NCBI RefSeq assembly: GCF_000233695.2
Contig: NZ_CM001488.1
Location: 2,250,053 to 2,314,052 of the forward strand
Direction of reading: 5' to 3'
DNA: 64,000 bases
From: Desulfobacter postgatei 2ac9
GTDB lineage: Bacteria > Desulfobacterota > Desulfobacteria > Desulfobacterales > Desulfobacteraceae
A program made the translations under genes and the position numbers. Of the stretch, positions 28,808 to 47,281 are shown piece after piece; within the stretch, counting starts at the first letter, position 1, and each line of letters starts with the position of its first letter. The notes under the pieces are model-generated. The model had not been told where the DNA came from and did not search any database. It saw only the letters and a list, made by a program, of their open reading frames with translations.

Positions 28808-30955
28808 TTATTTACGCTGCCAGGCCAAAAACCGTTCAACAATCCCTATCGCGGTTTTCGGCATCCGGGATCTTTTCCAGACACCCGCAGCAAATCGGCC
28901 GGACTCTGCCAGGGTCGGGTAAATATGGATGGTGCCAAGGATTTTATTAAGTCCGATATTGTATTTCATGGCCAAAATAAATTCATGGATCAAATCTCCG
29001 GCATGGGACCCCACAATGGTCACCCCCAGGATTTTGTCTTTTTGGGGAACGGTCAGCACTTTGACAAATCCCCGGGCTTCGGAGTCGGCAATGGCCCGGT
29101 CCAGATCGTCAATCCCGTAGCGGGTCATCTCGTAGGGAATATGGGCGGCAAGACAATCTTTTTCGTTCATTCCTACCCGGGCCACTTCGGGATCGGTAAA
29201 CGTACACCAGGGGATCACCCTGTAGTCTGCCGTGAATTTTTTAAAAGACCCGAACAATGCGTTTACAGAGGCATACCAGGCCTGATGAGCGGCCACATGG
29301 GTGAATTGATAAGGGCCGGCAACATCACCGGCCGCATAAATATTGGGCATGGTGGTCTGCAGCCATTTATTGGTTTTAATGGTACCATTGGGGTTGAGCG
29401 CCACCCCCAGTTTTTCCAGCCCAAACCCTTGGGAATTGGCCACACGGCCCAAGGCAATCAAAAGGGCGTCAAACCGAACGGGCACTTCTTGTCCATCCGA
29501 ATTTCGGGTACAGATCAGTTTTTTTTCGTCATTGTCCACCCGGATCTCCTTTGTCGTGTGCCCGGTGAGGACCCGAATGCCCTCCTGGATGAAGGTCTCT
29601 TGGATGAAATCGGACACATCGTCATCTTCCCGGCCCATGATCCGGACAGCTCTGCCTACCAGGGTAACCTGGGCACCTAAACGGGCAAAGGCCTGGCTGA
29701 TTTCGCACCCGATGGGACCGCCCCCCAGCACCACCAGCCGTTGGGGTAAATCTCTCAAAGACCAGACCGTATCAGAGGTGAGATACTGCACCTGGTCAAG
29801 GCCGGGGATGGCCGGAACCATCGGCCGGGCGCCCGTTGCCACGACAATGCTGCGGGTGGTGATGACTTTACCGTTCACCTCAATTTTATATGGGGAGATA
29901 ATATGGGCCTCGCCCCGGATGCAATCGACCCCGAGTTGGGTATACCGCTCCACAGAATCATGGGGTTCTATTTTTTTGATGATCTGTTCCACCCGCTCCA
30001 TGACCGTTTTAAAATGGAAGTCAATATGGGTATGTTCAAAACCAAACTCCTTGGCCCTTTTGGCATACGAGAGCATTTTTGCGCTGCGCAGCAAGGCTTT
30101 GCTGGGCACACACCCGGTGTTCAGGCAATCTCCCCCCATTTTGTCCTTTTCCACCAATGCCACACCCGCCTTCACAGCCGCTGCAATATAAGAGGTCACA
30201 AGACCTGCGGAACCGGCACCGATAACCACCAGGTTGTAGTCAAATTTTGAAGGCTTGGAAAATTTTGCCATGACCCGCCGGTTTTTCAAAAAGCCTGTGA
30301 ACGCCCTTGCCATCCAGGGGAAAAGTCCCAAAATGGCAAAGGAAGCGAGCAATGGAAAGGAGAGAATCCCGGATGCGCTTTCCACCTGGGATAACCGGGT
30401 GCCGGCATTGATGTAAGCAAGGGTCCCTGGAAGCATGCCCAGCTGACTTACGATGTAGAATATGCCCGTTTTAATGGGGGTCAGTCCCATGAGAAGGTTG
30501 ATGACAAAAAAGGGAAACACCGGCACCAGGCGCAGGGTGAAAAGATAAAAGGGACCGTCGGTTTCAATTCCCTCATTTATTTTTTTGAGCCGGTCGGAAA
30601 ATCGATCCTGGATGTACGCCCTTAACAGAAATCGGGACGCAAGAAAGGCCAGGGTCGCACCGATGGTGCTGGCAAAGGAGACAATGATTGTGCCGGTCCA
30701 AAGCCCAAACACGGCACCGCCTGCCAGGGTCATCACCACGGCTCCCGGAAGTGAGAGGGCCGTTATAACGATATAGACCGCCGCATAGATGAAGATGGTT
30801 AGAGTTGTGTTTTCGACATAAACATGTTCCATGGCGGCCTGTTGGGATTTAAGAGCCTCGAAGGTCAGGTGCCGGTGAAGATCCAATGAAAAAAACAGGA
30901 TAACGCCCAGGATAAATGTTCCAAGAATGAGTACCTTAAAGAATTTTTGATTCAT
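28808..30955 (-). CDS. Fusion of TVP38/TMEM64 (VTT) membrane domain with FAD-dependent pyridine nucleotide-disulfide oxidoreductase
   Basis: 715 aa. Residues 1-220 form a polytopic VTT/DedA-like domain (VITALSLPGAVVMTLAGGAVFG, RLVPVFPFFVINLLMG). After a short linker, about residues 240-715 are a complete mercuric/lipoamide-reductase-like flavoprotein: VVIGAGSAGLVTSYIA, redox-active GGDCLNTGCVPSKALL, NAD site VVLGGGPIGCEISQAF, AAGDVAG and the dimerisation domain ending THIYPTLAES. Such fusions are known, and a membrane-tethered reductase of unknown substrate is the usual reading. The ATG at 30955 is the native-looking start; an insertion-element end (30959-30978) sits a few bases upstream and leaves no SD. 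In-frame reading continues through that element to 31021. Confidence 0.85.
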   Translation of the reverse strand: MNQKFFKVLILGTFILGVILFFSLDLHRHLTFEALKSQQAAMEHVYVENTTLTIFIYAAVYIVITALSLPGAVVMTLAGGAVFGLWTGTIIVSFASTIGATLAFLASRFLLRAYIQDRFSDRLKKINEGIETDGPFYLFTLRLVPVFPFFVINLLMGLTPIKTGIFYIVSQLGMLPGTLAYINAGTRLSQVESASGILSFPLLASFAILGLFPWMARAFTGFLKNRRVMAKFSKPSKFDYNLVVIGAGSAGLVTSYIAAAVKAGVALVEKDKMGGDCLNTGCVPSKALLRSAKMLSYAKRAKEFGFEHTHIDFHFKTVMERVEQIIKKIEPHDSVERYTQLGVDCIRGEAHIISPYKIEVNGKVITTRSIVVATGARPMVPAIPGLDQVQYLTSDTVWSLRDLPQRLVVLGGGPIGCEISQAFARLGAQVTLVGRAVRIMGREDDDVSDFIQETFIQEGIRVLTGHTTKEIRVDNDEKKLICTRNSDGQEVPVRFDALLIALGRVANSQGFGLEKLGVALNPNGTIKTNKWLQTTMPNIYAAGDVAGPYQFTHVAAHQAWYASVNALFGSFKKFTADYRVIPWCTFTDPEVARVGMNEKDCLAAHIPYEMTRYGIDDLDRAIADSEARGFVKVLTVPQKDKILGVTIVGSHAGDLIHEFILAMKYNIGLNKILGTIHIYPTLAESGRFAAGVWKRSRMPKTAIGIVERFLAWQRK

Positions 30956-30958
30956 TTT

Positions 30959-30987
30959 CAGTAGTGTCCGGTTAGGTTTCTGAATGT
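30959..30987. repeat. Solo insertion-element end at the start of the VTT-reductase gene
   Basis: CAGTAGTGTCCGGTTAGGTT followed by TCTGAATG matches the MITE right end at 20.9 kb (reading inward) at nearly every base. It begins about 4 bp upstream of the ATG at 30955, so the element has replaced the native 5' leader. No matching second end was found within a few hundred bases. Confidence 0.6.
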
Positions 30988-31150
30988 AGCCATTTTTAGT
31001 CAAACATAACACCAAGGTCACTGGGTCTGACTCCTTTGGGGCCGGTTTTCTTTTTTTCAGTACCCGATCCGTTTGGCTTCAAGGCTCGTGATAAAGCTCT
31101 TTTCACCAAGGGGACGGGCAGTTATCCCATGCTTTTGTAGTGGAGTTATC

Positions 31151-34674: not shown

Positions 34675-37600
34675 ATGGGCTCCATGAGTTTAAAACGTGT
34701 AGATATTGCCGTGGTCGGCATGTCCGGTATTTTCCCCGGTGCCCGTGATATTCGGCAGTTCATTGCCAATGTCATGGCAAAAAAATCAAGTGTAATCCAG
34801 GTTCCCCCAGACCGGTGGGGTGTGTCCGCTGACATCATGGTGGACAACCGCGCCGGCACGCCGTTGCCGGATAAGGCCCGCAGCAGGTTTGCAGGGCTGA
34901 TTTCCCAATCGGTGTTTAATCCTTCCGATTTTGATTTTTGCGGGGCGGATATGGGCGGGCATGGTCTGGATAATGATTTTTTCCATGCCCTGGACCCGGT
35001 TCACCATTTAGCCCTTGCCGCCGGCATTGATCTTATGGCCAATGCCCGGCTTTCCAAAGCAAACCGGGCGCGCACAGGGATTGTGCTGGCTGCCATTGCC
35101 CTGCCCACACCGGGCGCATCGCGGCTGACCCGAGATCTTTTTTTGGCGCCAAATCCTGCAATGCCCTCCCGGGAACAAGCCTGGGGCGCCGGCATGCTGT
35201 CGGCGCCTGCGTCAATTCTGGCAAGGCTGTTGGGCTTGGCCGGCGGCAGTTTTACCCTGGATGCCGCCTGTGCATCTTCTTTGTTTTCCATAAAGCTTGC
35301 CTGCGAACAACTGCTCTCCGGAAGGGTGGACGCCATGGTGGCCGGCGGGGTATCCCGGCCCCAGTCCCTCTACACCCAGGTGGGATTTACCCAGCTCCAG
35401 GCCCTGTCGCCCACGGGCCGGTGCGCTCCCTTTGACCGGGATGCCGATGGTCTGGTGGTGGGGGAGGGTGCAGGCCTGGTCCTGCTTAAACGCCTGAACG
35501 ATGCCCTGGCCTGCCAGGACACCATCCACGCCGTGATTAAAGGATGGGGGGTGAGCAACGATATTGAAGGCAACCTGGTGGCTCCGGCCAGTGAAGGTCA
35601 GGTCCGGGCCATGACCGGTGCCTTTGACATGGCCGGTTGGTCTTTTGATGATATCCAGTACATGGAGTGCCACGGTTCCGGAACCCCCAAGGGGGATCAG
35701 GTGGAAGTCCACAGTATCATGCAGATGCGTCAAAAATATCAGTGCATGGATACCGCCTTATCCATTGGTTCGGTAAAGTCCAATATCGGCCATCTGCTGA
35801 CCGGTGCCGGCGCTGCCGGATTCATTAAAACGATTATGGCCATGAACCAGCTGCTGCTGCCGCCATCCAACAATTTCAATGCGCTGCCTGATGACTCCCC
35901 TTTTAAGAATAGCGGTGTCAGGGTCCAGGATCACCCTTCTGCCTGGATACCTGCCCGCGACGGCCGGCCTTTGCGGGCCGCAGTATCCGCCTTTGGGTTT
36001 GGCGGCATCAATGCCCAGATTCTTGTGGAATCTTTTAAGGCTCAATCACGTCCTCATGCGGTGGGTGTTACACCTGCCTCGGCCCCAAAAAGCGTTCCCT
36101 GTGCCATTGTGGGTATGGGGCTGATATCAGGTGGTGCGGAGTGCCTTGGGGATTTTTCCAAGCTTATTTTGGGCGAAAAATCCACTGTAGGCCGATCTGG
36201 AGAAAGCCGATGGCGCAGGTTTGATCATCTGCCCCCTGAAGTCCGCAGGGGGTTAACGTTGTTCATGGATGATCTGAGCATTGATCTCAAAGATTTTAAT
36301 ATCCCCCCCAACCAGATGAGCCAGATTTTGCCCCAGCATCTGATGATGCTCAAAGCAGCCCTGGCAGCCCTGGCAGATGCCGGTATCTCTGCCAAACCGG
36401 ATGCGTCACAACCACCCCGGGTAAACATGGGCTGTGCCGTGGGCATTGAATTTGATTTCGGGGCTACGGACTACCATTTAAGGTGGCAAATTCAGGGGCA
36501 AAAAAAAGGTGTATCCAGTGACCTGCTGGACACCGTCGGGCCGTCACTCAATTTTGGTTCAACACTGGGTGCCCTTGGGGGCATTGTGGCCTCCCGCCTG
36601 GCCCGGGCATTTAAACTGGGCGGCCCCTGCTTTACCCTCTCTGCGGATGCAGCTTCGGGAGTAACGGCCATTGATATTGCCGTTAAATCCCTGTCCACAG
36701 GCGAGACTGACACCTTTTTATGTGCAGCCGTGGATCTTGCCGCTGACATCAGAAGCTTTACCCGGGATCTGGTTTTGAGCGGCACGGACCCCATGGCCCT
36801 GCCTTCGGAAGGGGCTGTGGCCATGGTACTCAAACCCCTGGATGCGGCGCAAAGGGATAATGATCGGATTTATGCCGTGATCAATGGTGTGGCAGGTGCC
36901 GGCGGCGCTGCACTTGCCGGGGAAACCGGTGAGCAGGCCCATGTCTCACGGTCAACGGCTGTCCAAAATTCTTTACAAAAGGCTCTGGATCATGCCGGTA
37001 TGGATTTAAAGGATATCGGGCTTGGTGCAGTGACGCACAGTGCGTCTCACTTTCTGGGGGCAGGGGAGGTCTGCCCACTTGACAATGCTTTGCCGATTTT
37101 CTGTCCGTCTGCTTTGTCCGGGCATACCGGGGCTGCCGCAGGCCTTTTTACCGTTACGGCTGCAGCATTGTGTCTTTACACCCGAAAATTTCCCGCGCCT
37201 TTGCACAAGTTACCCGGCGTTCCCAAGACAGCTGTGGCAGGATGCCTGACCCGGGATGGTATTGCAGGGCATGTTATCTTGTCAGGCTGCCATCATTCAG
37301 GGCCAGGTGCCGACACCTGTCAGGCTGCGCAGACCCGGGAGAAAAACGGGCATACATCCACCTGCATAAGGATTCCTGTGACCCGTCCGCCTTTTCCCAG
37401 GGCCTTGATTGCCAACGAGGCTTTTGAACCCGCCCGGCAGGAAACTTCTTTTGATCTCTGCACTGAGCCGCCCAATATGCCACTGCCATTTCCCTGTGAC
37501 ACACTCCCGGGACTGCTGGCCCATACCCAGGAGATTACGGCCAGAGCCCATGAGCGCTTCCTGGAATTATCCGCCCAAAACACCCAGGCCATGGCTGAAC

Positions 37601-38904
37601 AGCTTGCCGCTATTGCCGGTGCAATGCCAAATGGCCGGAATCCGTCAATGGATCTGGAACCGGTCTTTGCGCCCCAGGATATTTCCAAGATTCCCGACCT
37701 GTTTATGGACCGGGACCAATGCCTTGAATTTGCCGTGGGAAAAGCCGGAAACGTGCTGGGTCCCGATTTCGATATCATTGACACCTACCCGGTCCGGGTG
37801 AGGTTGCCGGATGAACCGTTGATGCTGGTGGACCGGATTATATCCGTGCATGGCGAAAAACTCTCCTTAACGTCCGGAAAAGTGGTCACCCAGCATGATG
37901 TGCATGAAAATGCCTGGTACCTGGACGGTGGCAAAGCCCCGGTCTCCATCTCCATTGAAGCGGGCCAGGCCGATCTTTTCCTTTGCTCCTGGCTGGGCAT
38001 AGACCATGTGGTCAAAGGAAAACGCAAATACAGGCTGCTTGATGCCAAGGTGACCTTTCACCGCAGCCTGCCCGTGCCTGGTGAAACCATTGAATACCAC
38101 ATTGAGATAGACCGCTTCTTAAGGCAGGGGGAGATCTATCTTTTCTTTTTTCACTACCAGGGATATATTAATCAGCTGCCTTTTATCTCCATGCGGGATG
38201 GATGCGCAGGCTTTTTTACCGAACAGGAGGTGGAAAATTCCGGGGGCATTATCCTGAAAAAAGAAGATAAGGAAATGAATCTGCCGGGACCGCCGCCTGC
38301 ATGGTTTGCCCCGGTGAAAAGGTTAAGCCTGAATGATTCGCAGGTGGATGCACTTCGCACAGGGGATCTTGAAGCAGCGTTCGGCACGGATTTTAAAGGA
38401 AAGCGCACCGGAAGAGACCAATGGCTGCCCGGCGGGCCCATGCGCCTGATCCACCGGGTGCTTGATTTGGACCCCGGAGGCGGTCGGTTCGGTATGGGCC
38501 GGATTATTGCCCAGGCGGATATCCATCCCGATGACTGGTTTCTGACCTGCCATTTCATTGATGACATGGTGATGCCGGGCACCCTGATGTATGAGTGTTG
38601 TGCGCATACCCTGCGGGTCTTTGTCCAGCGAATGGGCTGGGTGCTGCCCCATGACCACGTCTGTTATAATGTGCTGGAGAAAAACGAGAGTGATTTGAAG
38701 TGCCGGGGGCCTGTGATCCGTGCCACGAAAAAAGCCCTTTACGATATTGAAATAAAAACAATCGGGTATGAACCCCAGCCTTTTGTGACGGCGGATGCTC
38801 ATATGTTTTCAGATGATCTTGAGATTGTATTTTACAAGGATATGGGAATGAAACTTGAAGGGGCGACTCGCCTGGATCTTGGGGCGTACTGGAGGAAAGC
38901 ATGA
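34675..38904 (+). CDS. PfaC-type polyketide/PUFA synthase-like protein: KS, chain-length-factor KS, two FabA-like dehydratases
   Basis: 1409 aa. KS1 (about 1-460) has the full triad: DAACASS (Cys199), ECHGSGTPKGD and SNIGHLLTGAG. KS2 (about 475-880) keeps the fold and SGHTGAAAG, but the nucleophile position reads ADAASG, so Cys is Ala, as expected of a chain length factor. DH1 (about 1020-1190: NAWYLDGG, SIEAGQADL, YRLLDAKVTFH) and DH2 (about 1230-1400: CHFIDDMVMPGTLMYE with catalytic His) are hotdog domains in the order of PUFA synthase subunit C. ACP, KR, AT and ER domains are absent. Its TGA overlaps the oleA ATG. I infer it elongates and dehydrates acyl chains used by OleA. Confidence 0.85.
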   Translation: MGSMSLKRVDIAVVGMSGIFPGARDIRQFIANVMAKKSSVIQVPPDRWGVSADIMVDNRAGTPLPDKARSRFAGLISQSVFNPSDFDFCGADMGGHGLDNDFFHALDPVHHLALAAGIDLMANARLSKANRARTGIVLAAIALPTPGASRLTRDLFLAPNPAMPSREQAWGAGMLSAPASILARLLGLAGGSFTLDAACASSLFSIKLACEQLLSGRVDAMVAGGVSRPQSLYTQVGFTQLQALSPTGRCAPFDRDADGLVVGEGAGLVLLKRLNDALACQDTIHAVIKGWGVSNDIEGNLVAPASEGQVRAMTGAFDMAGWSFDDIQYMECHGSGTPKGDQVEVHSIMQMRQKYQCMDTALSIGSVKSNIGHLLTGAGAAGFIKTIMAMNQLLLPPSNNFNALPDDSPFKNSGVRVQDHPSAWIPARDGRPLRAAVSAFGFGGINAQILVESFKAQSRPHAVGVTPASAPKSVPCAIVGMGLISGGAECLGDFSKLILGEKSTVGRSGESRWRRFDHLPPEVRRGLTLFMDDLSIDLKDFNIPPNQMSQILPQHLMMLKAALAALADAGISAKPDASQPPRVNMGCAVGIEFDFGATDYHLRWQIQGQKKGVSSDLLDTVGPSLNFGSTLGALGGIVASRLARAFKLGGPCFTLSADAASGVTAIDIAVKSLSTGETDTFLCAAVDLAADIRSFTRDLVLSGTDPMALPSEGAVAMVLKPLDAAQRDNDRIYAVINGVAGAGGAALAGETGEQAHVSRSTAVQNSLQKALDHAGMDLKDIGLGAVTHSASHFLGAGEVCPLDNALPIFCPSALSGHTGAAAGLFTVTAAALCLYTRKFPAPLHKLPGVPKTAVAGCLTRDGIAGHVILSGCHHSGPGADTCQAAQTREKNGHTSTCIRIPVTRPPFPRALIANEAFEPARQETSFDLCTEPPNMPLPFPCDTLPGLLAHTQEITARAHERFLELSAQNTQAMAEQLAAIAGAMPNGRNPSMDLEPVFAPQDISKIPDLFMDRDQCLEFAVGKAGNVLGPDFDIIDTYPVRVRLPDEPLMLVDRIISVHGEKLSLTSGKVVTQHDVHENAWYLDGGKAPVSISIEAGQADLFLCSWLGIDHVVKGKRKYRLLDAKVTFHRSLPVPGETIEYHIEIDRFLRQGEIYLFFFHYQGYINQLPFISMRDGCAGFFTEQEVENSGGIILKKEDKEMNLPGPPPAWFAPVKRLSLNDSQVDALRTGDLEAAFGTDFKGKRTGRDQWLPGGPMRLIHRVLDLDPGGGRFGMGRIIAQADIHPDDWFLTCHFIDDMVMPGTLMYECCAHTLRVFVQRMGWVLPHDHVCYNVLEKNESDLKCRGPVIRATKKALYDIEIKTIGYEPQPFVTADAHMFSDDLEIVFYKDMGMKLEGATRLDLGAYWRKA

Positions 38905-39953
38905 AGTACGACAAGGTGTTTATTGAATCCTTTGGATATGAGCTGGCACCCCACATCGTGACCAGTCGGGAAATTGATGAAAAACTCGCCCCTTTTTTTG
39001 AGGCTGTGGGATTTGTGCCGGGCCAGCTGGAGGCTTTAACCGGCATCCGGGAGCGCCGGTACTGGGATGAGGACCATACCCTGGCCGAACATGCGGCTGT
39101 GGCAGGGAAGCGGGCCCTGGATGAAGCAGGTATCAGTCCCAAAGAACTGGGGGCCCTGTGTTTCTGCGGGGTGTGCCAGGACGGGTTTGAACCGGCTACA
39201 TCCTGTGCGGTGGCAGACAAGATCGGGGTGGGGCCGCGGACCCATGTATATGATGTAAAATCTGCCTGCCTTGGCATGATTACGGGCATGGTTCATGTGG
39301 CCAATGAGATTCAGCTCGGGCATATTAAAGCAGGACTGGTGGTCTCCTGCGAGTCGGCCCGGCAGATTGTGGACGCCACCATTGAAGAGATTAACACCCA
39401 TAAAAGCATTGATTTTTACAGAGAAGCTGTGGCTACCATGACCGGCGGCTCCGGGGCTGCGGCAATTCTGCTCACCGACGGAACCCTGGGCAAATCCTCG
39501 ACCCAGCGCCATGCGGTCAAAGGCGGGGTGGTGAACAATGCCATCCGTCACTGGGCGCTTTGTTCCTGGGGATTTGAAGATAAGGGGATGCCTACGGATT
39601 CAAGGGTGATCATGCGTACCAATGCCCAGAAAGTGCTTGACCACGGCGTGGAACTGGTCGTGGAAACTTATGAATTGTTCCGCAAAGAGTTCAATTTGCC
39701 TGCGGATAAACCGGATAAAATAGTTGGTCACCAGGTGGGGGAGGGCCATCACAATAGATTTTATACGGCCATGAATATTGACCGGAAAAAGGATTTTTCA
39801 ACCTTTCCTTTCCTGGGAAATGTGGGCTCCGTGTCCCTGCCGATTTCGGCGGCCATTGCCGATGAACGCGGGTTTTTTGTGCCAGGAGATTTTGTGGTAT
39901 TTGTGGGGGTTGGGTCCGGACTTAACTGCTATTTTCTGGGGGTGGAATGGTAA
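38901..39953 (+). CDS. oleA: OleA: head-to-head acyl-CoA condensing enzyme (3-oxoacyl-ACP synthase III family)
   Basis: 350 aa thiolase-fold protein. The active-site Cys123 lies in DVKSACLGM, His in GHQVGEGHHNRF and Asn in FPFLGNVGSVSLP, giving the Cys-His-Asn triad of FabH-like enzymes. The upstream FEPATS glutamate (Glu97) corresponds to the OleA-specific base. OleA makes 2-alkyl-3-ketoacids from two acyl chains. Alternatives are other KASIII enzymes, but adjacency to OleB and OleC fixes the reading. The ATG overlaps the PfaC-like stop by 4 nt and its stop overlaps oleB. Confidence 0.85.
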   Translation: MKYDKVFIESFGYELAPHIVTSREIDEKLAPFFEAVGFVPGQLEALTGIRERRYWDEDHTLAEHAAVAGKRALDEAGISPKELGALCFCGVCQDGFEPATSCAVADKIGVGPRTHVYDVKSACLGMITGMVHVANEIQLGHIKAGLVVSCESARQIVDATIEEINTHKSIDFYREAVATMTGGSGAAAILLTDGTLGKSSTQRHAVKGGVVNNAIRHWALCSWGFEDKGMPTDSRVIMRTNAQKVLDHGVELVVETYELFRKEFNLPADKPDKIVGHQVGEGHHNRFYTAMNIDRKKDFSTFPFLGNVGSVSLPISAAIADERGFFVPGDFVVFVGVGSGLNCYFLGVEW

Positions 39954-40858
39954 CAAGAATTATCAACGGGCAGCGGACTTCCACCACAGGGTTTGAGCGC
40001 CTTTATCCATTTGGACCCCATTATGCCAGGATTAACGGGCATCAAATGCATTATGTGGATCAGGGAAAAGGCAGGCCTGTACTCATGGTCCACGGCAACC
40101 CCACCTGGTCCTTTTATTTTCGTCATCTGATCAGAGGATTGTCCGGCCGTTTCAGGACCATTGCCCCGGACCACATCGGGTGCGGATTTTCAGATAAGCC
40201 TTCGGCGAAAACTTATGATTACACCCTGGATCAACGGGTGTCGGATCTGGATGCCCTGATCCGCCGGCTGGATATCAATGAAAAAATATCGCTGATCGTC
40301 CATGATTGGGGTGGGATGATCGGGCTTTCCTGGGCCCTGGACAATCTGGAACGGGTGGACAAAATTGTTATCACCAATACCTCGGGATTTTTTCTGCCGG
40401 CTTCCAAACGCTTGCCGGCAGCGCTTTGGATCATTAAATATCTTTTTCCCTTTGCCGTGCCTGCTGTTTTAGGCGCCAACATATTTGCCCGGGGTGCCTT
40501 ATATCTTGCCGCCGAAACCCGGCTGTCCCAATCCGTGAAAAAAGGTCTTGTTGCCCCATACAACAGTTGGCAAAATCGCATTGCCACCTTAAAATTTGTC
40601 CAGGATATACCGATAACAGCAAAAGACAGAAGTTATGCCAGGGTTCAAAAAGTCGATCAAGGCCTTTGCGCCCTTGACCCGGATCGGTTAATGTTTTTAT
40701 GGGGAACCCGGGATTTTGTTTTTGATATTCACTTTCTTGAGGAATTTAAAAACAGATTTCCCCGAACCTCTGCCCATGTATTTGAGGATGCCGGTCATTA
40801 CCTGTTCGAAGATAAGCCCGGTCCATGCCTTAAATTGATTCAAAAATTTTTGTCCTGA
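39947..40858 (+). CDS. oleB: OleB: alpha/beta hydrolase, beta-lactone decarboxylase
   Basis: 303 aa, haloalkane-dehalogenase-like hydrolase. Oxyanion motif HGNPTWSFYFRH, nucleophile elbow VHDWGGMIG with Asp120 in place of Ser, and a C-terminal His in EDAGHYLFED. Asp-nucleophile hydrolases next to OleA/OleC are OleB, which turns the cis-beta-lactone into an olefin with CO2 loss. The gene overlaps oleA by 7 nt. It is a separate gene here, unlike the OleBC fusions of some bacteria. Confidence 0.85.
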   Translation: MVTRIINGQRTSTTGFERLYPFGPHYARINGHQMHYVDQGKGRPVLMVHGNPTWSFYFRHLIRGLSGRFRTIAPDHIGCGFSDKPSAKTYDYTLDQRVSDLDALIRRLDINEKISLIVHDWGGMIGLSWALDNLERVDKIVITNTSGFFLPASKRLPAALWIIKYLFPFAVPAVLGANIFARGALYLAAETRLSQSVKKGLVAPYNSWQNRIATLKFVQDIPITAKDRSYARVQKVDQGLCALDPDRLMFLWGTRDFVFDIHFLEEFKNRFPRTSAHVFEDAGHYLFEDKPGPCLKLIQKFLS

Positions 40859-40932
40859 CATTTTCTTCTTTTTTAGATTTTGACTTTCAGCCCCATTCCG
40901 GATAAATTGGGACCGGGTAAATATTAGGTGCT

Positions 40933-41616
40933 ATGGGACTATTAAAAAAGAAAAAAAAAGATGAGTCGTCGGAACCGATCGAACAGGCCCAGGGCAAAGA
41001 TGGCGGTGATCCCAAGGCCGCTAAAGCCAAACCTAAAAATAAAGGTTTGTTCAAAAAGCTGATTATTCTTCTGCTCATTTTGGGAATACTTGGCGGGGGC
41101 GGATTCTTTGTGTACACCAAATTTTTAAGTTCTGATAACCAAAACGACCTGGGTTATCAACCTGGAACCCTTACCCATGTCTCCCTGCCCGGGGAGATAC
41201 TCGCCTTTTGTTTTGCCCGTATGCCCGACCTTTACGATGCCCTGGTGGCATTTAACGGTGAAATGGATTTGTTTGAGGCTGAAATTGCCCGTATTGATGC
41301 AGTGGCCACCAAATATCCGGATCAAAAGAAAATTGCCGACGGCCAAAAAAAAATATGGGAAAAGGGAAAGGATTCTTTAAAAAAAACTTTTGAAAAGTTG
41401 GAAAAACCCATTAAAGAAACCTTTGTATTGTTCCAGGTCAACCAGGCTGCGGGACAGGAAAAAATTGATCAAACTGCTGAACAGATGATTCTGGACGCCG
41501 GTGACGCCCTGAAAAAAGCCCAAGAACAGACAGCCCCGCTGAAGAACGCCATGCCCAAGGCCCCCGAAGGCATGGTCAAAGGAACCCTGTATAAAATAAA
41601 AAAAATGTTCTTATGA
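40933..41616 (+). CDS. Single-pass membrane protein with basic N-terminus and helical domain, unknown function
   Basis: 227 aa. A Lys-rich cytosolic tail (MGLLKKKKKDE, then KAAKAKPKNKGLFKK), one membrane helix (LIILLLILGILGGGGFFVY, about residues 38-57) and a mostly helical, Lys/Glu/Gln-rich domain predicted to be coiled coil. It lies between oleB and oleC, 74 nt behind oleB, and its TGA overlaps the oleC ATG (ATGA). The place in the operon would usually hold oleD, but this is no reductase: there is no Rossmann motif. I infer a scaffold or membrane anchor for the Ole enzymes. Confidence 0.75.
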   Translation: MGLLKKKKKDESSEPIEQAQGKDGGDPKAAKAKPKNKGLFKKLIILLLILGILGGGGFFVYTKFLSSDNQNDLGYQPGTLTHVSLPGEILAFCFARMPDLYDALVAFNGEMDLFEAEIARIDAVATKYPDQKKIADGQKKIWEKGKDSLKKTFEKLEKPIKETFVLFQVNQAAGQEKIDQTAEQMILDAGDALKKAQEQTAPLKNAMPKAPEGMVKGTLYKIKKMFL

Positions 41617-43265
41617 CACGCTATACAAATATTGCCCAAAGCCTGAAACACTCCGCGCAAATCTATCCATTCAAACGGGCCGTGGTCTACCCGGCCTCAC
41701 GGGATAGCTCCGGGCGCGTCCTTTACAGCCAACTGACTTTTTCCCAGCTTGACCGGCAGTCCGACAGCCTTGCCGCAGGGCTTGACAGCATCGGCATTGG
41801 CCGGGGAACCCGTACCATTTTAATGGTACCCCCGGGTATGGAGTTTTTTCTTACGGTGTTTGCCATGTTCAAAGTCGGGGCTGTGCCGGTGGTGGTGGAT
41901 CCCGGCATGGGGATTGACCGGATGTTGCAATGCCTTGTCCAAAGTCGACCCAAGGCATTTATCGGTATTGAAAAGGCCCATGTGCTTAGAACCCTGCGCC
42001 CCGGTTTTTTTAAGACCGTGAAACGATGGGTGACCGTGGGCAGAAAGTGGTTCTGGGGCGGCTACACCCTGAACCAGTTGATGAACAGGTTCCCGGGCGC
42101 GCCTTTCAAATCGGTACAGACCACGGAGAACGAAACCGCTGCCATTGTATTTACCACCGGCTCCACAGGGCCTGCCAAGGGCGTTATTTATACCCATGGA
42201 AATTTTGAGGCCCAGATTCGTCAAATCCAATCCCATTTTAAGATTTCAGCCGATGAGATTGACCTGCCCACCTTTCCGCTTTTTGCACTGTTTGATCCTG
42301 CCTTGGGGATGACGGCGGTGATTCCGGACATGGATCCCACAAAACCGGCCCTGGTGAATCCCGTAAAAATTGTCGAAGCCATAGAAAATCATGGCGTGAC
42401 CAATATGTTTGCATCCCCGGCCCTTTTGAACCGGGTGGGAAAATACGGTAAGGAAAACGGCATCAAACTGCCCTCATTGCGCCGGGTGGTCTCTGCCGGC
42501 GCACCTGTCAATCCGGCCAATATTGAACAGTTTTCATCCATGCTCTCCGATGATACCCAGATTCATACACCTTACGGGGCCACGGAAGCGGTTCCTATCA
42601 TATCCATCGGCTCCCATGAAATCCTTTCGGAAACGAAAAAACTTTCGGAATATGGTTTTGGCATGTGCGTGGGCCGGCCCATTGGAGATACACAGGTGAA
42701 ATTGATCAAGATTTCAGATGAGCCCATCACCCGGATCCAGGATCTCATAGAGGTGCCTGAAAACAATGTGGGGGAAATCGCGGTAAAAGGAGATCTTGTG
42801 ACTGAGCATTATTTTAACGATGCCAATGCCGATCTTCTGGCGAAAATACCGGATACGGACGGCAAAATATGGCACAGGATGGGAGATTTGGGCTGGAAGG
42901 ATTCAAAGGGCAGAATCTGGTTTTGCGGCAGAAAGGCCCACCGGGTTGAAACCGGAAAAGAGACCTTGTTCTCCATCCCCGTCGAAGCCATATTCAACAA
43001 TCATGAAAAGGTCTACCGCAGTGCGCTCGCAGGCGTCGGCCCTAAAAATTGTCAGATTCCGGTGGTTTTTGTGGAGCCTTTTGAAAAAATATCCGATGAA
43101 AAGCAATTTATCCGGGAGCTCTCCTATCTTGCCCATAAAAATCCTTTGACCGCCGGGATTAAATACATTTTCATTGAATATAAATTCCCGGTGGATATTC
43201 GACACAACTCCAAAATTTTCAGGGAAAAACTGGCAATCAAGGCCCAGGAGCTAATCAGTGGATAA
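41613..43265 (+). CDS. oleC: OleC: beta-lactone synthetase (acyl-CoA ligase-like)
   Basis: 550 aa ANL-superfamily enzyme. AMP-binding loop VFTTGSTGPAKGVIYTHGNFEAQ, the A5-type PYGATEAVP, and the C-terminal hinge WHRMGDLGWKDSKGRIWFCGRKAHRVE are present. OleC converts the 2-alkyl-3-hydroxyacid to a cis-beta-lactone using ATP. The GRKxHRVET hinge differs from ordinary acyl-CoA ligases and is shared by OleC proteins. Last gene of the operon. The immediate partner OleD (2-alkyl-3-ketoacid reductase) is not encoded within this window. Confidence 0.85.
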   Translation: MTRYTNIAQSLKHSAQIYPFKRAVVYPASRDSSGRVLYSQLTFSQLDRQSDSLAAGLDSIGIGRGTRTILMVPPGMEFFLTVFAMFKVGAVPVVVDPGMGIDRMLQCLVQSRPKAFIGIEKAHVLRTLRPGFFKTVKRWVTVGRKWFWGGYTLNQLMNRFPGAPFKSVQTTENETAAIVFTTGSTGPAKGVIYTHGNFEAQIRQIQSHFKISADEIDLPTFPLFALFDPALGMTAVIPDMDPTKPALVNPVKIVEAIENHGVTNMFASPALLNRVGKYGKENGIKLPSLRRVVSAGAPVNPANIEQFSSMLSDDTQIHTPYGATEAVPIISIGSHEILSETKKLSEYGFGMCVGRPIGDTQVKLIKISDEPITRIQDLIEVPENNVGEIAVKGDLVTEHYFNDANADLLAKIPDTDGKIWHRMGDLGWKDSKGRIWFCGRKAHRVETGKETLFSIPVEAIFNNHEKVYRSALAGVGPKNCQIPVVFVEPFEKISDEKQFIRELSYLAHKNPLTAGIKYIFIEYKFPVDIRHNSKIFREKLAIKAQELISG

Positions 43266-44426: not shown

Positions 44427-46085
44427 TCAAACGCCTGCTGGAAGGAGAACAAGCTCTTGAATGAATTTTCTACATAAATCGATACTGTGGGGATGATGGT
44501 AAATGCCGCCCTCATGATCCATTCCTCTGGGAATGCCGTCTGTTAAGAACATCCGGATTAAAAGGATGCTGGCCTTGTATCTGTCCATTTTCCCATGGCA
44601 GCTGTTTTCAATGTCTAAAACTTCGCCGGCACTTAACGCCTCAGGCAAAACACCATTTGGCTCCACACAGAATTTAAGAAAATTTAAAATTCTTGCCAGG
44701 CGTAAAAGCGTGACCGCTTCAAGCCTGGAAGTCCTATCCGGCACTGGAAAGGCTGTGGAGCGCATTAAGGTAAACTCATTGGGCAGCAACTGCTGTTGTT
44801 CACACAGGGTATAATCCGCACTGCCCGGGGCCGGATAATAAATGGAGAGGCCGGCAATGGTTCTTCTGGCCGCAAGTGCCAAAAGATCATTTAAGGTGGT
44901 TTCTGCTGTCTGAGCTGGAGCGGCCCCAATGAGATAAGAGACACAATCCATATCCAGTTCTTTGGCGATCTCCAGCACCCTGTCATGGGCATCTCTGACG
45001 TCAGGGCGTTTAAAGCGCTTTAACTGGGTTGCACTGAAAGAGCCCACGGACAGGTTCAGGGTTTTGAAGCCGGATGCTTTCATGGCCGTCAGGATCTCGG
45101 TGTCAAGGGATGGGGGAAAAAGCCCGTTCATGGCCCGAAGTTCAATATCCTCTCCCTTGAATATTTGCCGGATGCCGTGTAAAAGCTCCAGTACCCATGA
45201 TTTTTTAAGGGTTAGGTTTTCATCCTCAAAATCAATGAAGCCAATCTGTTTAGACCTGGCCTGCAATTTGATTTCATCAAGAACATCATTAACCGGGCGC
45301 ATCCGAAAATTCGCGTAATTGCTGGATGCAGACACCGCGCAATATGAACAGGAAAAAGGACACCCTCTTGACGCCACAATGGTGATGGCTGCTTTTTTAT
45401 TGCGCCGGTAAAAGTGCCAGTCGATTTTATCCAAAGCATTCTGGTCAAGCCCATGGGGAGAATCTGCCCAGGCCGGCGGATTGAGTACAATACCATTGCC
45501 CAGCCTGAAACCGATGCCGTTGATTTGTCTTAAATCATCTGCGTCAGGTAAGCTGCCTGGGGGGTGGCTTTTTAACAGTTGTGCAAGCTGTACCATGGGC
45601 GTCTCGCCTTCTCCCTGGATGACAAAATCAATCTCGTCGTTTTCGAGGCAGTTTTTGGGAAACTGGGTGGCATGATGCCCCCCAAGAACAATAAAGGCGT
45701 TGGGCCAGAATCGTTTCACGGCCCGTGCCGTGTCCAGGGCCTGGTCCCAATAAGGGGTGAACAAGGCAGATATGCCCACTAAAAAAGGCTTTTCCTGTTT
45801 GACCAGATTTGCAATATGCTCAAAACTGTAGCCAAAGTGTCTGTAATGGTGGAACAAGGAGAACAAGGTAATATCGGTTTTCCCGTAATAGGGAACCAGG
45901 TGATCAAACCCTTTCGGGTATTCAATAATCTTTGATTTATCCCTGGCAAGCGCATCAATGACGGTGCATGAAAATCCGGCCTGTTCCAGCTCCTTGGCAA
46001 TACAGGCCAGTCCGTAGGGAATGGTGCGTTTCTTTGTCAGGTAAAATTCCCGGATGGGCGGGGCGATTAATATAACATCCGGCAT
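44427..46085 (-). CDS. B12-binding-domain radical SAM protein
   Basis: 552 aa from the ATG at 46085. N-terminal cobalamin-binding-like domain (DVILIAPP, GISALFTPYWDQALDTARAV, VLGGHHATQFPK), then a radical SAM core with CPFSCSYC (three Cys for [4Fe-4S]) and the usual GFIDFEDENLTLKK. The C-terminus is helical. This class makes C-C or C-S bonds or methylates unactivated carbons; the substrate is unknown. The frame extends upstream to 46160 into the MFS gene, and 46085 fits the family start with a weak SD that overlaps the MFS stop. Probably co-transcribed with the MFS gene. Confidence 0.8.
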   Translation of the reverse strand: MPDVILIAPPIREFYLTKKRTIPYGLACIAKELEQAGFSCTVIDALARDKSKIIEYPKGFDHLVPYYGKTDITLFSLFHHYRHFGYSFEHIANLVKQEKPFLVGISALFTPYWDQALDTARAVKRFWPNAFIVLGGHHATQFPKNCLENDEIDFVIQGEGETPMVQLAQLLKSHPPGSLPDADDLRQINGIGFRLGNGIVLNPPAWADSPHGLDQNALDKIDWHFYRRNKKAAITIVASRGCPFSCSYCAVSASSNYANFRMRPVNDVLDEIKLQARSKQIGFIDFEDENLTLKKSWVLELLHGIRQIFKGEDIELRAMNGLFPPSLDTEILTAMKASGFKTLNLSVGSFSATQLKRFKRPDVRDAHDRVLEIAKELDMDCVSYLIGAAPAQTAETTLNDLLALAARRTIAGLSIYYPAPGSADYTLCEQQQLLPNEFTLMRSTAFPVPDRTSRLEAVTLLRLARILNFLKFCVEPNGVLPEALSAGEVLDIENSCHGKMDRYKASILLIRMFLTDGIPRGMDHEGGIYHHPHSIDLCRKFIQELVLLPAGV

Positions 46086-46096
46086 GGGCTGTGTGC

Positions 46097-47281
46097 CTAC
46101 TTTATTTTGGGAAACAGAGCAATGGGTACAAGGCAGGCCAGCGGGATAAATGCCGTACATTTAAGAACGATGGTCAGTCCGAAAATATCTGCCAGCCGGC
46201 CTATTCCCGGGGCAATGACCCCGCCAAGCCCATAGGCCAGTCCCATCATGAGGCTGGCTGCCATGGCCCGGGATCCCGGCGCAAGCTTCTGGGCCATGAC
46301 CACGCCTAAGGGCATGGGGGCCAGCACAAAAAAACCGGAAAGAAAGGCACCGGTGTATGCCCCCAATCCCGGCATGTATAAAAACATCAAAAGAGTCGGG
46401 GGCATGAGCAGGTATGACAGCAAAAAAACAGGCTTAAACCCGAACCGGTCTGCGCAATAGCCTGCGGTCAGTCCGGACAGGGTCCCGGCAATGGTGAAAA
46501 GCGCAATGATTACCCCCACAGAGGGCAGGGTATGGTCCTGACGGGTCAGGTAAATGGGCATGAAGGTTAAAAATGTCTGGCCTACAACAGCTCGCAGCAC
46601 CATGACCAGCCATATTAAAAAAATCGTTTTATACACCTTTCCAAAGGTGTGCTTCAAACTGTTGATAAATCCTAACCCTGCCATGTTCTCGGATACGGGT
46701 TTGGGCATATACTTCAGGCAGAATATAAAGGATACGAGACCCAATATCATGGTCCAGGGCATGGCAGATAAGCCAAACCGGCTCACATACGAGGTAATGA
46801 ATACAGGACCCAAAGCAAAGGCCAGAGTTCCGCCGGTATTGAAAATAGACTGTGCAAACCCTGCCCGGTTTCCGGCATACAGATTCACCATACCCGAAGT
46901 GGATGGATGAAACATGGAGGAACCCACAGAGCCCAGACACAGCGTGGTTAGCAATATCCAATAATTGGGTGCGATACCGGAAAAGGGAATGACAAAAAAA
47001 ACCAAAAACAATCCGGTGAGTACAAACCATCGGGTTTCGTACCTGTCAGCCATATACCCCACCACCGGCTGAACCACAAAAGCTAAGAAACGCACGGCAC
47101 CGGTAATCAGGCCCACCTGGGTCAGGGTAAGAGACAGCTTGGCTTGGAATGCCGGCAGCAAAGGGGTGAAAAAGGATGAATAGAAATCTCCGGTAAAATG
47201 AACCAGGCTTAGAACCAGGACAATTTTATAATCAATTCTCTCCCCCCGGGGCAACGGTCCCGGAGTTTGGGCGGTACTCAT
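46097..47281 (-). CDS. MFS transporter, Fsr (fosmidomycin resistance)-like
   Basis: 394 aa, about 12 transmembrane helices. HFTGDFYSSFFTPLLPAFQ in helix 1 and GYMADRYETRW (the A-type motif after helix 2) are typical, as is SMFHPSTSGMV, which resembles the Fsr subgroup. Predicted inner-membrane exporter of a small molecule. It lies between rpe and the radical SAM gene on the same strand and is the likely first half of a transporter/rSAM pair. Confidence 0.78.
   Translation of the reverse strand: MSTAQTPGPLPRGERIDYKIVLVLSLVHFTGDFYSSFFTPLLPAFQAKLSLTLTQVGLITGAVRFLAFVVQPVVGYMADRYETRWFVLTGLFLVFFVIPFSGIAPNYWILLTTLCLGSVGSSMFHPSTSGMVNLYAGNRAGFAQSIFNTGGTLAFALGPVFITSYVSRFGLSAMPWTMILGLVSFIFCLKYMPKPVSENMAGLGFINSLKHTFGKVYKTIFLIWLVMVLRAVVGQTFLTFMPIYLTRQDHTLPSVGVIIALFTIAGTLSGLTAGYCADRFGFKPVFLLSYLLMPPTLLMFLYMPGLGAYTGAFLSGFFVLAPMPLGVVMAQKLAPGSRAMAASLMMGLAYGLGGVIAPGIGRLADIFGLTIVLKCTAFIPLACLVPIALFPKIK

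What the first reader, a model, noticed from the sequence alone, without database searches (positions are those of the whole stretch)
34675..43265. PfaC-type PUFA-synthase subunit fused into an ole (head-to-head olefin) operon without oleD
Seen: a KS-CLF-DH-DH protein overlaps oleA by 4 nt, oleA overlaps oleB, then a membrane protein and oleC follow with overlap. Known: OleABCD makes long-chain olefins and beta-lactones, and in Shewanella polyunsaturated hydrocarbons depend on a separate Pfa synthase. Inferred: here one Pfa-type subunit is hard-wired to the Ole machinery, suggesting dehydration-rich acyl chains are made next to OleA, possibly giving a polyene olefin. OleD, ACP, KR and AT must come from elsewhere.
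Basis: partly seen in the sequence, partly recalled or inferred. Interest (0 to 1): 0.78.

Follow-up and report, generated by a model that had tools for sequence, protein, structure and literature searches.

The report
Split polyene-hydrocarbon synthase in Desulfobacter
A strictly anaerobic sulfate-reducing bacterium keeps one piece of a polyunsaturated-fat factory in the same operon as enzymes that join two fatty chains into a hydrocarbon; the pairing recurs across its bacterial order, but here the factory has been split and rearranged.

Summary
In detail: pfaC–oleA–oleB–membrane protein–oleC, tightly packed, at 34675-43265, in a Desulfobacter genome. (1) The pairing is no one-off: in 45 of 60 oleA loci fetched across the order a PfaC-type gene lies directly upstream, and 144 of 149 OleA-positive genomes have a PfaC match. 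The pairing is in print for Geobacter, which makes the C31:9 polyene. (2) Missing parts exist: oleD stands alone 1.15 Mb away; pfaD and pfaA lie 0.95 Mb away, and in D. latus pfaD and the start of pfaA follow oleC. (3) "DH-DH" is one pseudo-DH/DH unit, half a normal PfaC set; the other half is fused to PfaA. (4) No PfaB-type terminal acyltransferase was found in the genome. Best reading: a split Pfa-type synthase whose KS-CLF-DH1 subunit is made with OleA and feeds polyene chains into OleABCD, giving a long polyunsaturated olefin. I found no lipid data for this organism. New variant of a known kind. Side finding: pfaA in two Desulfobacter genomes looks recoded by −1 slippage at a shared A9 run.

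The parts
34675..38904 (+). pfaC-type gene, 1409 aa: KS (10-455) - CLF (about 475-880) - linker with TARAHERFL (955) - one pseudo-DH/DH unit (FabA match 1251-1385); no AT domain found, no second DH unit
38901..39953 (+). oleA, head-to-head condensing thiolase; Cys123, Glu97, His277, Asn307 kept
39947..40858 (+). oleB, beta-lactone decarboxylase of the haloalkane-dehalogenase-like fold
   Evidence: position between oleA and oleC in relatives
40933..41616 (+). unnamed Ole-associated protein, 227 aa: basic tail, one hydrophobic helix, helical coil; 11 relatives, each between oleB and oleC
41613..43265 (+). oleC, beta-lactone synthetase (AMP-binding)

Best explanation
The operon encodes the KS-CLF-DH1 subunit of a Pfa-type (PUFA-synthase-like) polyene synthase together with OleA, OleB, OleC and a probably membrane-anchored accessory protein. 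The rest of the synthase, pfaD (enoyl reductase) and pfaA (KS-MAT-ACP2 followed by KR-pseudoDH-DH unit 2), lies 0.95 Mb away, and oleD stands alone 1.15 Mb away. Proposed working: PfaA loads malonate on its tandem ACPs and does the early cycles; PfaC's KS-CLF and DH1 do later condensations and dehydration/isomerisation; OleA takes two polyene acyl chains from the synthase and joins them head to head; OleD, OleC and OleB turn the beta-keto acid into a long polyunsaturated olefin of the C31:9 type. Shown: gene content, domains, catalytic motifs, linkage and co-occurrence. Inferred: transfer from Pfa ACP to OleA in this organism (supported in Shewanella by others), the division of work between the two condensing subunits, the chain length and the number of double bonds.
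For: PfaC-type gene directly upstream of oleA on the same strand in 45 of 60 oleA-anchored loci (14 not, 1 at a contig end), 41 of the 45 within 220 nt. 144 of 149 OleA-positive genomes among 242 of the order have a PfaC match; 134 have PfaC, OleA and PfaD. KS groups with PfaC. Rest of the synthase found: pfaD passes TIGR02814 (613 vs 449 bits); PfaA matches TIGR02813 at 3.7e-295 (983 bits, under its 1010 cut-off). In D. latus the order is pfaC-oleA-oleB-TM-oleC-pfaD-pfaA, contig end inside pfaA. oleD: NF042422 2.2e-112, and 49-60% identical to the oleD found in 32 of 45 linked loci. OleD in 10 of 10 family genomes searched. Published: Geobacter bemidjiensis has pfaD,A,B,C-oleA-D-pfaE in tandem and makes C31:9 (PMC4882568, passages); OleA plus Pfa gives a 31:8 ketone in a fadD-minus E. 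coli (PMC6463001, first part and passages).
Against: No lipid or expression data. pfaC is not next to oleA in 14 of 60 loci, and 38 of 182 PfaC-positive genomes have no OleA at E<=1e-60 (some of these matches may be other KS-CLF proteins, some genomes are incomplete), so PfaC may work without Ole. OleC, OleD and PfaA score under the curated cut-offs of their exact families. OleA could also take chains from the ordinary fatty-acid synthase, as in Xanthomonas (PMC6463001).
Confidence: 0.8

Rival explanations
1. The Pfa synthase makes free or lipid-bound PUFA, and OleABCD condenses ordinary fatty acyl chains; the shared operon only co-regulates two membrane-lipid pathways.
For: Ole pathways fed by type II FAS are known (PMC6463001). 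AT-bearing PfaC proteins are the majority form in the linked loci with full architecture (27 of 37), so in many relatives PUFA release is possible.
Against: In the window genome no PfaB-type AT was found, and PfaC-OleA linkage and co-occurrence are strong. PMC6463001 says that OleA of PUFA producers condenses only the Pfa-derived chain.
Confidence: 0.12
2. PfaC partners the 3812-aa megasynthase at G000:C1:3876638-3888076 rather than the unlinked PfaA/PfaD.
For: It is another KS/AT/ACP/KR/DH/ER synthase with a PPTase gene next to it.
Against: It has three KS-like stretches, AT, KR, DH and an ER-like domain of its own. PfaA+PfaD lacks a KS-CLF, which PfaC would supply, and in D. latus pfaD-pfaA sits behind pfaC-ole.
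Confidence: 0.05
3. The operon is a decaying remnant: the synthase was broken up and the part left by ole no longer works.
For: Rearranged, no AT found, one DH unit fewer, oleD displaced; pfaA is in two frames.
Against: Catalytic motifs intact. D. latus keeps the gene with 83-89% identity across its three parts. The pfaA frame break is shared with D. latus at the same A9 run, and the stretch behind it is under purifying selection (dN/dS 0.25).
Confidence: 0.05

Closest known systems
Geobacter bemidjiensis pfaD-A-B-C-oleA-B-C-D-pfaE cluster (Type I secondary lipid synthase; PMC4882568, PMC3098273)
   Same: Pfa-type synthase genes directly followed by ole genes in a strict anaerobe; product there is C31:9
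   Different: Window: synthase split into two loci, no AT found in PfaC, one DH unit on PfaA, oleD elsewhere, extra protein between oleB and oleC
Shewanella/Photobacterium PfaABCD + OleABCD (PMC6463001)
   Same: PfaC KS-CLF-DH set; OleA takes chains from the Pfa synthase
   Different: There PfaC carries both DH units and PfaB is present; pfa and ole are two operons, adjacent in Photobacterium profundum SS9
Type C/K/S clusters of Desulfatibacillum, Desulfococcus, Desulfobacterium (PMC3098273)
   Same: Pfa-like synthases in sulfate reducers; the paper says ole genes are often linked to such clusters
   Different: Type C is described as a KS-CLF-AT-DH2 fusion; an ole-embedded, AT-less form is not in section 7 or the passages that I read

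Membership tests
PfaC subunit of PUFA synthase | active KS followed by Cys-less CLF | tested here: met
   motifs
PfaC subunit of PUFA synthase | KS groups with PfaC KS, not PfaA KS or FabF | tested here: met
   34 PfaC rows on one side of a branch, 97/95; the own-genome outgroups have very long branches
PfaC subunit of PUFA synthase | two pseudo-DH/DH units (four hotdog folds) | tested here: not met
   one unit in PfaC; a second is fused to PfaA
Pfa synthase, whole | PfaA (KS-MAT-ACP-KR-DH) and PfaD in the genome | tested here: met
   L017; unlinked, and pfaA is in two frames
Pfa synthase, whole | PfaB-type terminal acyltransferase | tested here: not met
   two PF00698 domains in the genome (E<=0.001), neither in PfaC nor free-standing
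Pfa synthase, whole | phosphopantetheinyl transferase | tested here: inconclusive
   a PF01648 protein lies next to the 3812-aa synthase; its specificity is not known
OleABCD pathway | OleA thiolase with Cys/Glu/His/Asn set (set recalled) | tested here: met
OleABCD pathway | OleB, OleC, OleD all present in the genome | tested here: met
   OleB, OleC in the window; OleD at G000:C1:1137063-1138055; OleC and OleD under the exact-family cut-offs
OleABCD pathway | makes olefin | not testable with these tools
   needs lipid analysis
Shulse-Allen Type I/C (pfaBC fusion) | KS-CLF-AT-DH fusion protein | tested here: not met
   no AT match; 2 aa between the CLF and DH1 matches in the D. latus orthologue, against 513-756 aa in AT-bearing relatives

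The most novel reading that the evidence does not exclude
In Desulfobacter and in 7 of the 8 family genomes whose PfaC was seen, the Pfa synthase has lost its exit acyltransferase and one dehydratase unit sits on PfaA instead of PfaC, so OleA, translated together with PfaC, is the only exit for the polyene chain: a dedicated polyene-hydrocarbon synthase that makes no PUFA for phospholipids. In Desulfobacter PfaA is in addition made in a short and a long form by programmed −1 slippage at a conserved A9 run, which sets the ratio of ACP/MAT to KR/DH2 domains.
Probability: 0.3. Interest if true: 0.68.

Novelty: new variant of a known kind. Interest (0 to 1): 0.5.

Why it matters
It suggests that a large group of strictly anaerobic sulfate reducers and their relatives makes polyunsaturated long-chain hydrocarbons, and that PfaC-OleA is the stable core of the system while the rest of the synthase moves about. 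The AT-less, domain-shuffled form is a natural experiment on how a Pfa synthase decides between releasing PUFA and feeding OleA. The products would also be a possible lipid marker for sediments.

Tried and rejected
Structure of the PfaC DH unit: AlphaFold with three sequences failed (pLDDT 32), not used. Structure of the accessory protein: helical, pLDDT 66.5; best PDB fold match E 0.78; nothing claimed from it. AT loss as a rule tied to OleA: not supported. In linked loci with full architecture 27 have AT and 10 do not (one search gives 26 and 11; I moved L102 to AT for its 581-aa linker; 8 of the 45 linked loci with cut or split PfaC were left out). Among OleA-negative genomes in the displayed, capped rows, read by eye, ORF length suggests 8 with AT (G091, G103, G112, G120, G166, G175, G189, G217) and 2 without (G071, G085); rows that looked like fragments were dropped. 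So the share without AT is much the same, and the commitment idea rests on the window's family only. Partnership of PfaC with the 3812-aa synthase considered and given low weight. Named relatives: the genome-contig scan gave only three loci, all Desulfobacter. Literature; in the rows listed I saw no title on this operon in Desulfobacter; long hit lists were capped, and subscription journals and bioRxiv are not held.
Full report
WHAT IS THERE. The window lies in a one-contig 3.97-Mb genome. Five genes on + run from 34675 to 43265 with overlaps of 4, 7 and 4 nt and one 74-nt gap. Pfam, NCBIfam and PDB comparisons give PfaC-type KS-CLF-DH, OleA, OleB, an unnamed protein with one hydrophobic helix, and OleC.

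THE PfaC PROTEIN. The KS has its Cys and two His; the second KS-like stretch lacks the Cys. Two hotdog-like stretches follow. Pfam on the whole protein sees the second; a genome scan sees the first weakly (6e-5). The second aligns with FabA structures with its His. A review states that the DH part of PfaC is four contiguous hotdog folds, each DH with a pseudo-DH in front (PMC4882568, passages). The window protein therefore has one unit of two. In 53 ORFs of relatives that carry both units, unit 1 matches the window's DH part at 48-58% and unit 2 matches the DH part of the window genome's PfaA at 40-52%; those that also have the KS are 1735-2532 aa. In the window's family unit 2 sits at the end of PfaA: five of five family genomes of genera g3 and g4 show one ORF of 2477-2741 aa, KS-MAT-ACP-KR-pseudoDH-DH2, while six of six PfaA ORFs from outside the family that were not cut by the stretch end without a DH unit (two more were cut, three further stretches showed only pfaD). 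Two genomes of family f18, which also have one-unit PfaC, carry unit 2 on ORFs of 2816 and 2859 aa whose other domains I did not check; G107, the third one-unit case, gave no unit-2 match at E<=1e-30; genus g2 of the family has it on ORFs of 1018-1044 aa. So the move is either older than the family or happened more than once.

THE MISSING PARTS. pfaD and pfaA lie at G000:C1:3232046-3241527, minus strand, about 0.95 Mb from the window operon. OleD is a single gene at 1137063-1138055; its best matches are the two 2-alkyl-3-oxoalkanoate reductase (OleD) models at 3.5e-114 and 2.2e-112, 381 and 376 bits under cut-offs of 580; it is 49-60% identical to the oleD found in 32 of 45 linked loci. AT domains: two in the genome, the MAT in PfaA and the AT of the 3812-aa synthase. 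A 2026 paper reports that PfaB, the AT not found here, acts as terminal acyltransferase and appears to be required for flux beyond C18 (PMC12895367, passages). The Ole route of PUFA producers is predicted to use a C16:4 chain (PMC6463001), so a synthase without PfaB could still serve OleA; that step is inference. Of the 8 family genomes whose PfaC I saw, 7 (G000, G092, G176, G206, G218, G228, G237) show no AT in it and G035 does (G218 is cut at the front).

LINKAGE. From 242 genomes of the order: PfaC match in 182, OleA in 149, PfaD in 177 (E limits 1e-60, 1e-60, 1e-80). Both PfaC and OleA in 144; all three in 134; OleA without PfaC in 5; PfaC without OleA in 38 (Fisher p 2e-23, which ignores kinship). 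I fetched 60 oleA-anchored loci, chosen to spread over families from the 149, besides 20 loci chosen for their PfaC match. PfaC lies directly upstream in 45 of the 60, not in 14, contig end in 1; oleB is in 42, oleC in 38 and oleD in 32 of the 45, some of the rest being cut by contig ends. In the window's family (10 genomes): pfaC and oleA lie within 10 nt in 6 (G000, G092, G176, G206, G218, G228), about 0.15 kb apart in G035 and 1.6 kb apart in G237; G154 and G192 have oleA without pfaC in the fetched stretch. pfaD lies over 0.9 Mb away in the two one-contig genomes (G000, G237) and on another contig in G176, G206, G218 and G228, but 0.6 kb behind oleC in D. latus. Other families have pfaA in front of pfaC (for example L066, L091, L092, L135, L141), so the D. 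latus order looks like a re-joining; this is inference. One D. postgatei MAG contig has pfaC-oleA-oleB-oleC, 26 nt between the oleB and oleC frames, no match to the accessory protein and none to pfaD on its 11.5 kb.

TREE. KS domains: 34 PfaC rows on one side of one branch and 15 PfaA rows on one side (97/95 each); the window's PfaC KS is sister to D. latus inside a family clade (98/90), and its PfaA KS likewise (family clade 100/100). I thinned 79 rows to 54 by taking every second PfaC row and keeping nine by choice. Branches of the own-genome outgroups are very long, so rooting is unsafe.

THE ACCESSORY PROTEIN. 11 relatives in the 80 loci scanned, all between oleB and oleC: 7 in the 20 PfaC-chosen loci, 4 in the 60 oleA-anchored loci, of which 1 is among the 45 linked ones. 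Nine invariant columns in the 12-row alignment. The model is a helical coil; the hydrophobic stretch and both ends have low confidence, and no PDB fold match is significant. A role as membrane anchor of the OleBCD complex is a guess. It is missing between oleB and oleC in most loci, in G176 and G218 of the family and in the MAG, so it is not essential.

THE pfaA FRAME BREAK. In the window genome PfaA is in two overlapping frames, 1369 and 1215 codons open, which match one continuous ORF in five family genomes. They meet at GCT-A9-CTT. D. latus has the same A9 at the same place with changes around it. The 113 codons behind it in the −1 frame have no ATG, GTG or TTG in the window genome (D. latus has GTG at codons 23 and 79), yet dN/dS between the two species is 0.25 (dS 0.44), against 0.18 for the rest. 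That argues for translation by −1 slippage, ribosomal or transcriptional, rather than for a sequencing error or a dead gene; an unusual start codon is not excluded. Among the 20 rows listed none was about such recoding in a PUFA synthase; a weak test.

WHAT IT MOST LIKELY DOES. See Best explanation. The pairing pfa-ole is in print (PMC3098273, section 7 and passages; PMC4882568, passages; PMC6463001, first part and passages). PMC3098273 already says that ole genes are often linked to such clusters and suggests that the Type I synthases supply olefin precursors. A 2009 paper reports polyunsaturated hydrocarbons in the sulfate reducer Desulfotalea psychrophila and connects them with other fatty-acid gene clusters (PMC2649909, passages). 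New here, as far as the capped listings reach: the PfaC-OleA linkage counted over an order, the AT-less half-DH PfaC, unit DH2 on PfaA, the displaced oleD, the accessory protein family and the A9 recoding.

Noticed in passing
L017:9640-9720 (G000:C1:3235639-3235719, minus strand) and L177: pfaA is split in two frames at an A9 run kept in Desulfobacter latus; the following 113 codons lack ATG/GTG/TTG in the window genome but dN/dS is 0.25, which points to −1 slippage. A short inverted repeat (GGTTTC-CAAA-GAAACC) lies just before the run in both.
   Followed up: yes
window 40933-41616; L062, L063, L064, L067, L068, L075, L081, L111, L126, L130, L133: Unnamed helical protein family with one hydrophobic helix, in the loci scanned always between oleB and oleC; no Pfam or NCBIfam match for the window member.
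   Followed up: partly
L018:6639-18811 (G000:C1:3876638-3888810): A 3812-aa synthase (ER-like, three KS-like, AT, ACP, KR, DH domains) with a PPTase gene behind it; AT-bearing ORFs of 3729-4212 aa occur in all ten family genomes searched.
   Followed up: partly
whole genome G000: Only two PF00698 domains, both in megasynthases: no free-standing FabD was found, although type II-like KS genes exist. The 3812-aa protein may serve as a main fatty-acid synthase, as PMC3098273 proposed for the Type S cluster of Desulfobacterium autotrophicum.
   Followed up: no
G000:C1:1486000-1514000 (L019, L020): Four KS matches, a FabA/FabZ-like match and a DAK2/DegV/B12-radical-SAM protein of 1125 aa; recalls the multi-FabF clusters that PMC2649909 compares between anammox bacteria and Desulfotalea.
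   Followed up: no
window PfaC residue 955; PfaA proteins before the ACPs: Shared motif T-A-x-A-H-x-x-F/Y-L in 44 of 57 PfaC-type and 9 of 16 PfaA-type proteins, in PfaC in front of DH1: maybe a docking helix.
   Followed up: partly
L136 (G054:C1:1460800-1480700) and L143: In G054 a DH-only protein (1076 aa, both DH units) sits next to oleA while a KS-CLF match lies about 0.19 Mb away; in L143 KS-CLF and DH parts are two overlapping ORFs.
   Followed up: no
G035, G154, G192 (genus g2 of the family): This sister genus keeps an AT in PfaC (G035) or has oleA away from pfaC (G154, G192), and no clear oleC was seen within the fetched stretches.
   Followed up: no
window 28808-31021 (-) and 44427-46160 (-): A VTT-domain/pyridine-nucleotide oxidoreductase fusion (737 aa) and a B12-binding radical SAM protein (577 aa) lie on either side of the operon on the other strand.
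   Followed up: no
L084 and L086 (D. postgatei MAG SZUA-453): Two contigs of one MAG carry overlapping parts of pfaC that differ (CLF part 90 and 82% identical to the window): mixed strains or two copies.
   Followed up: no
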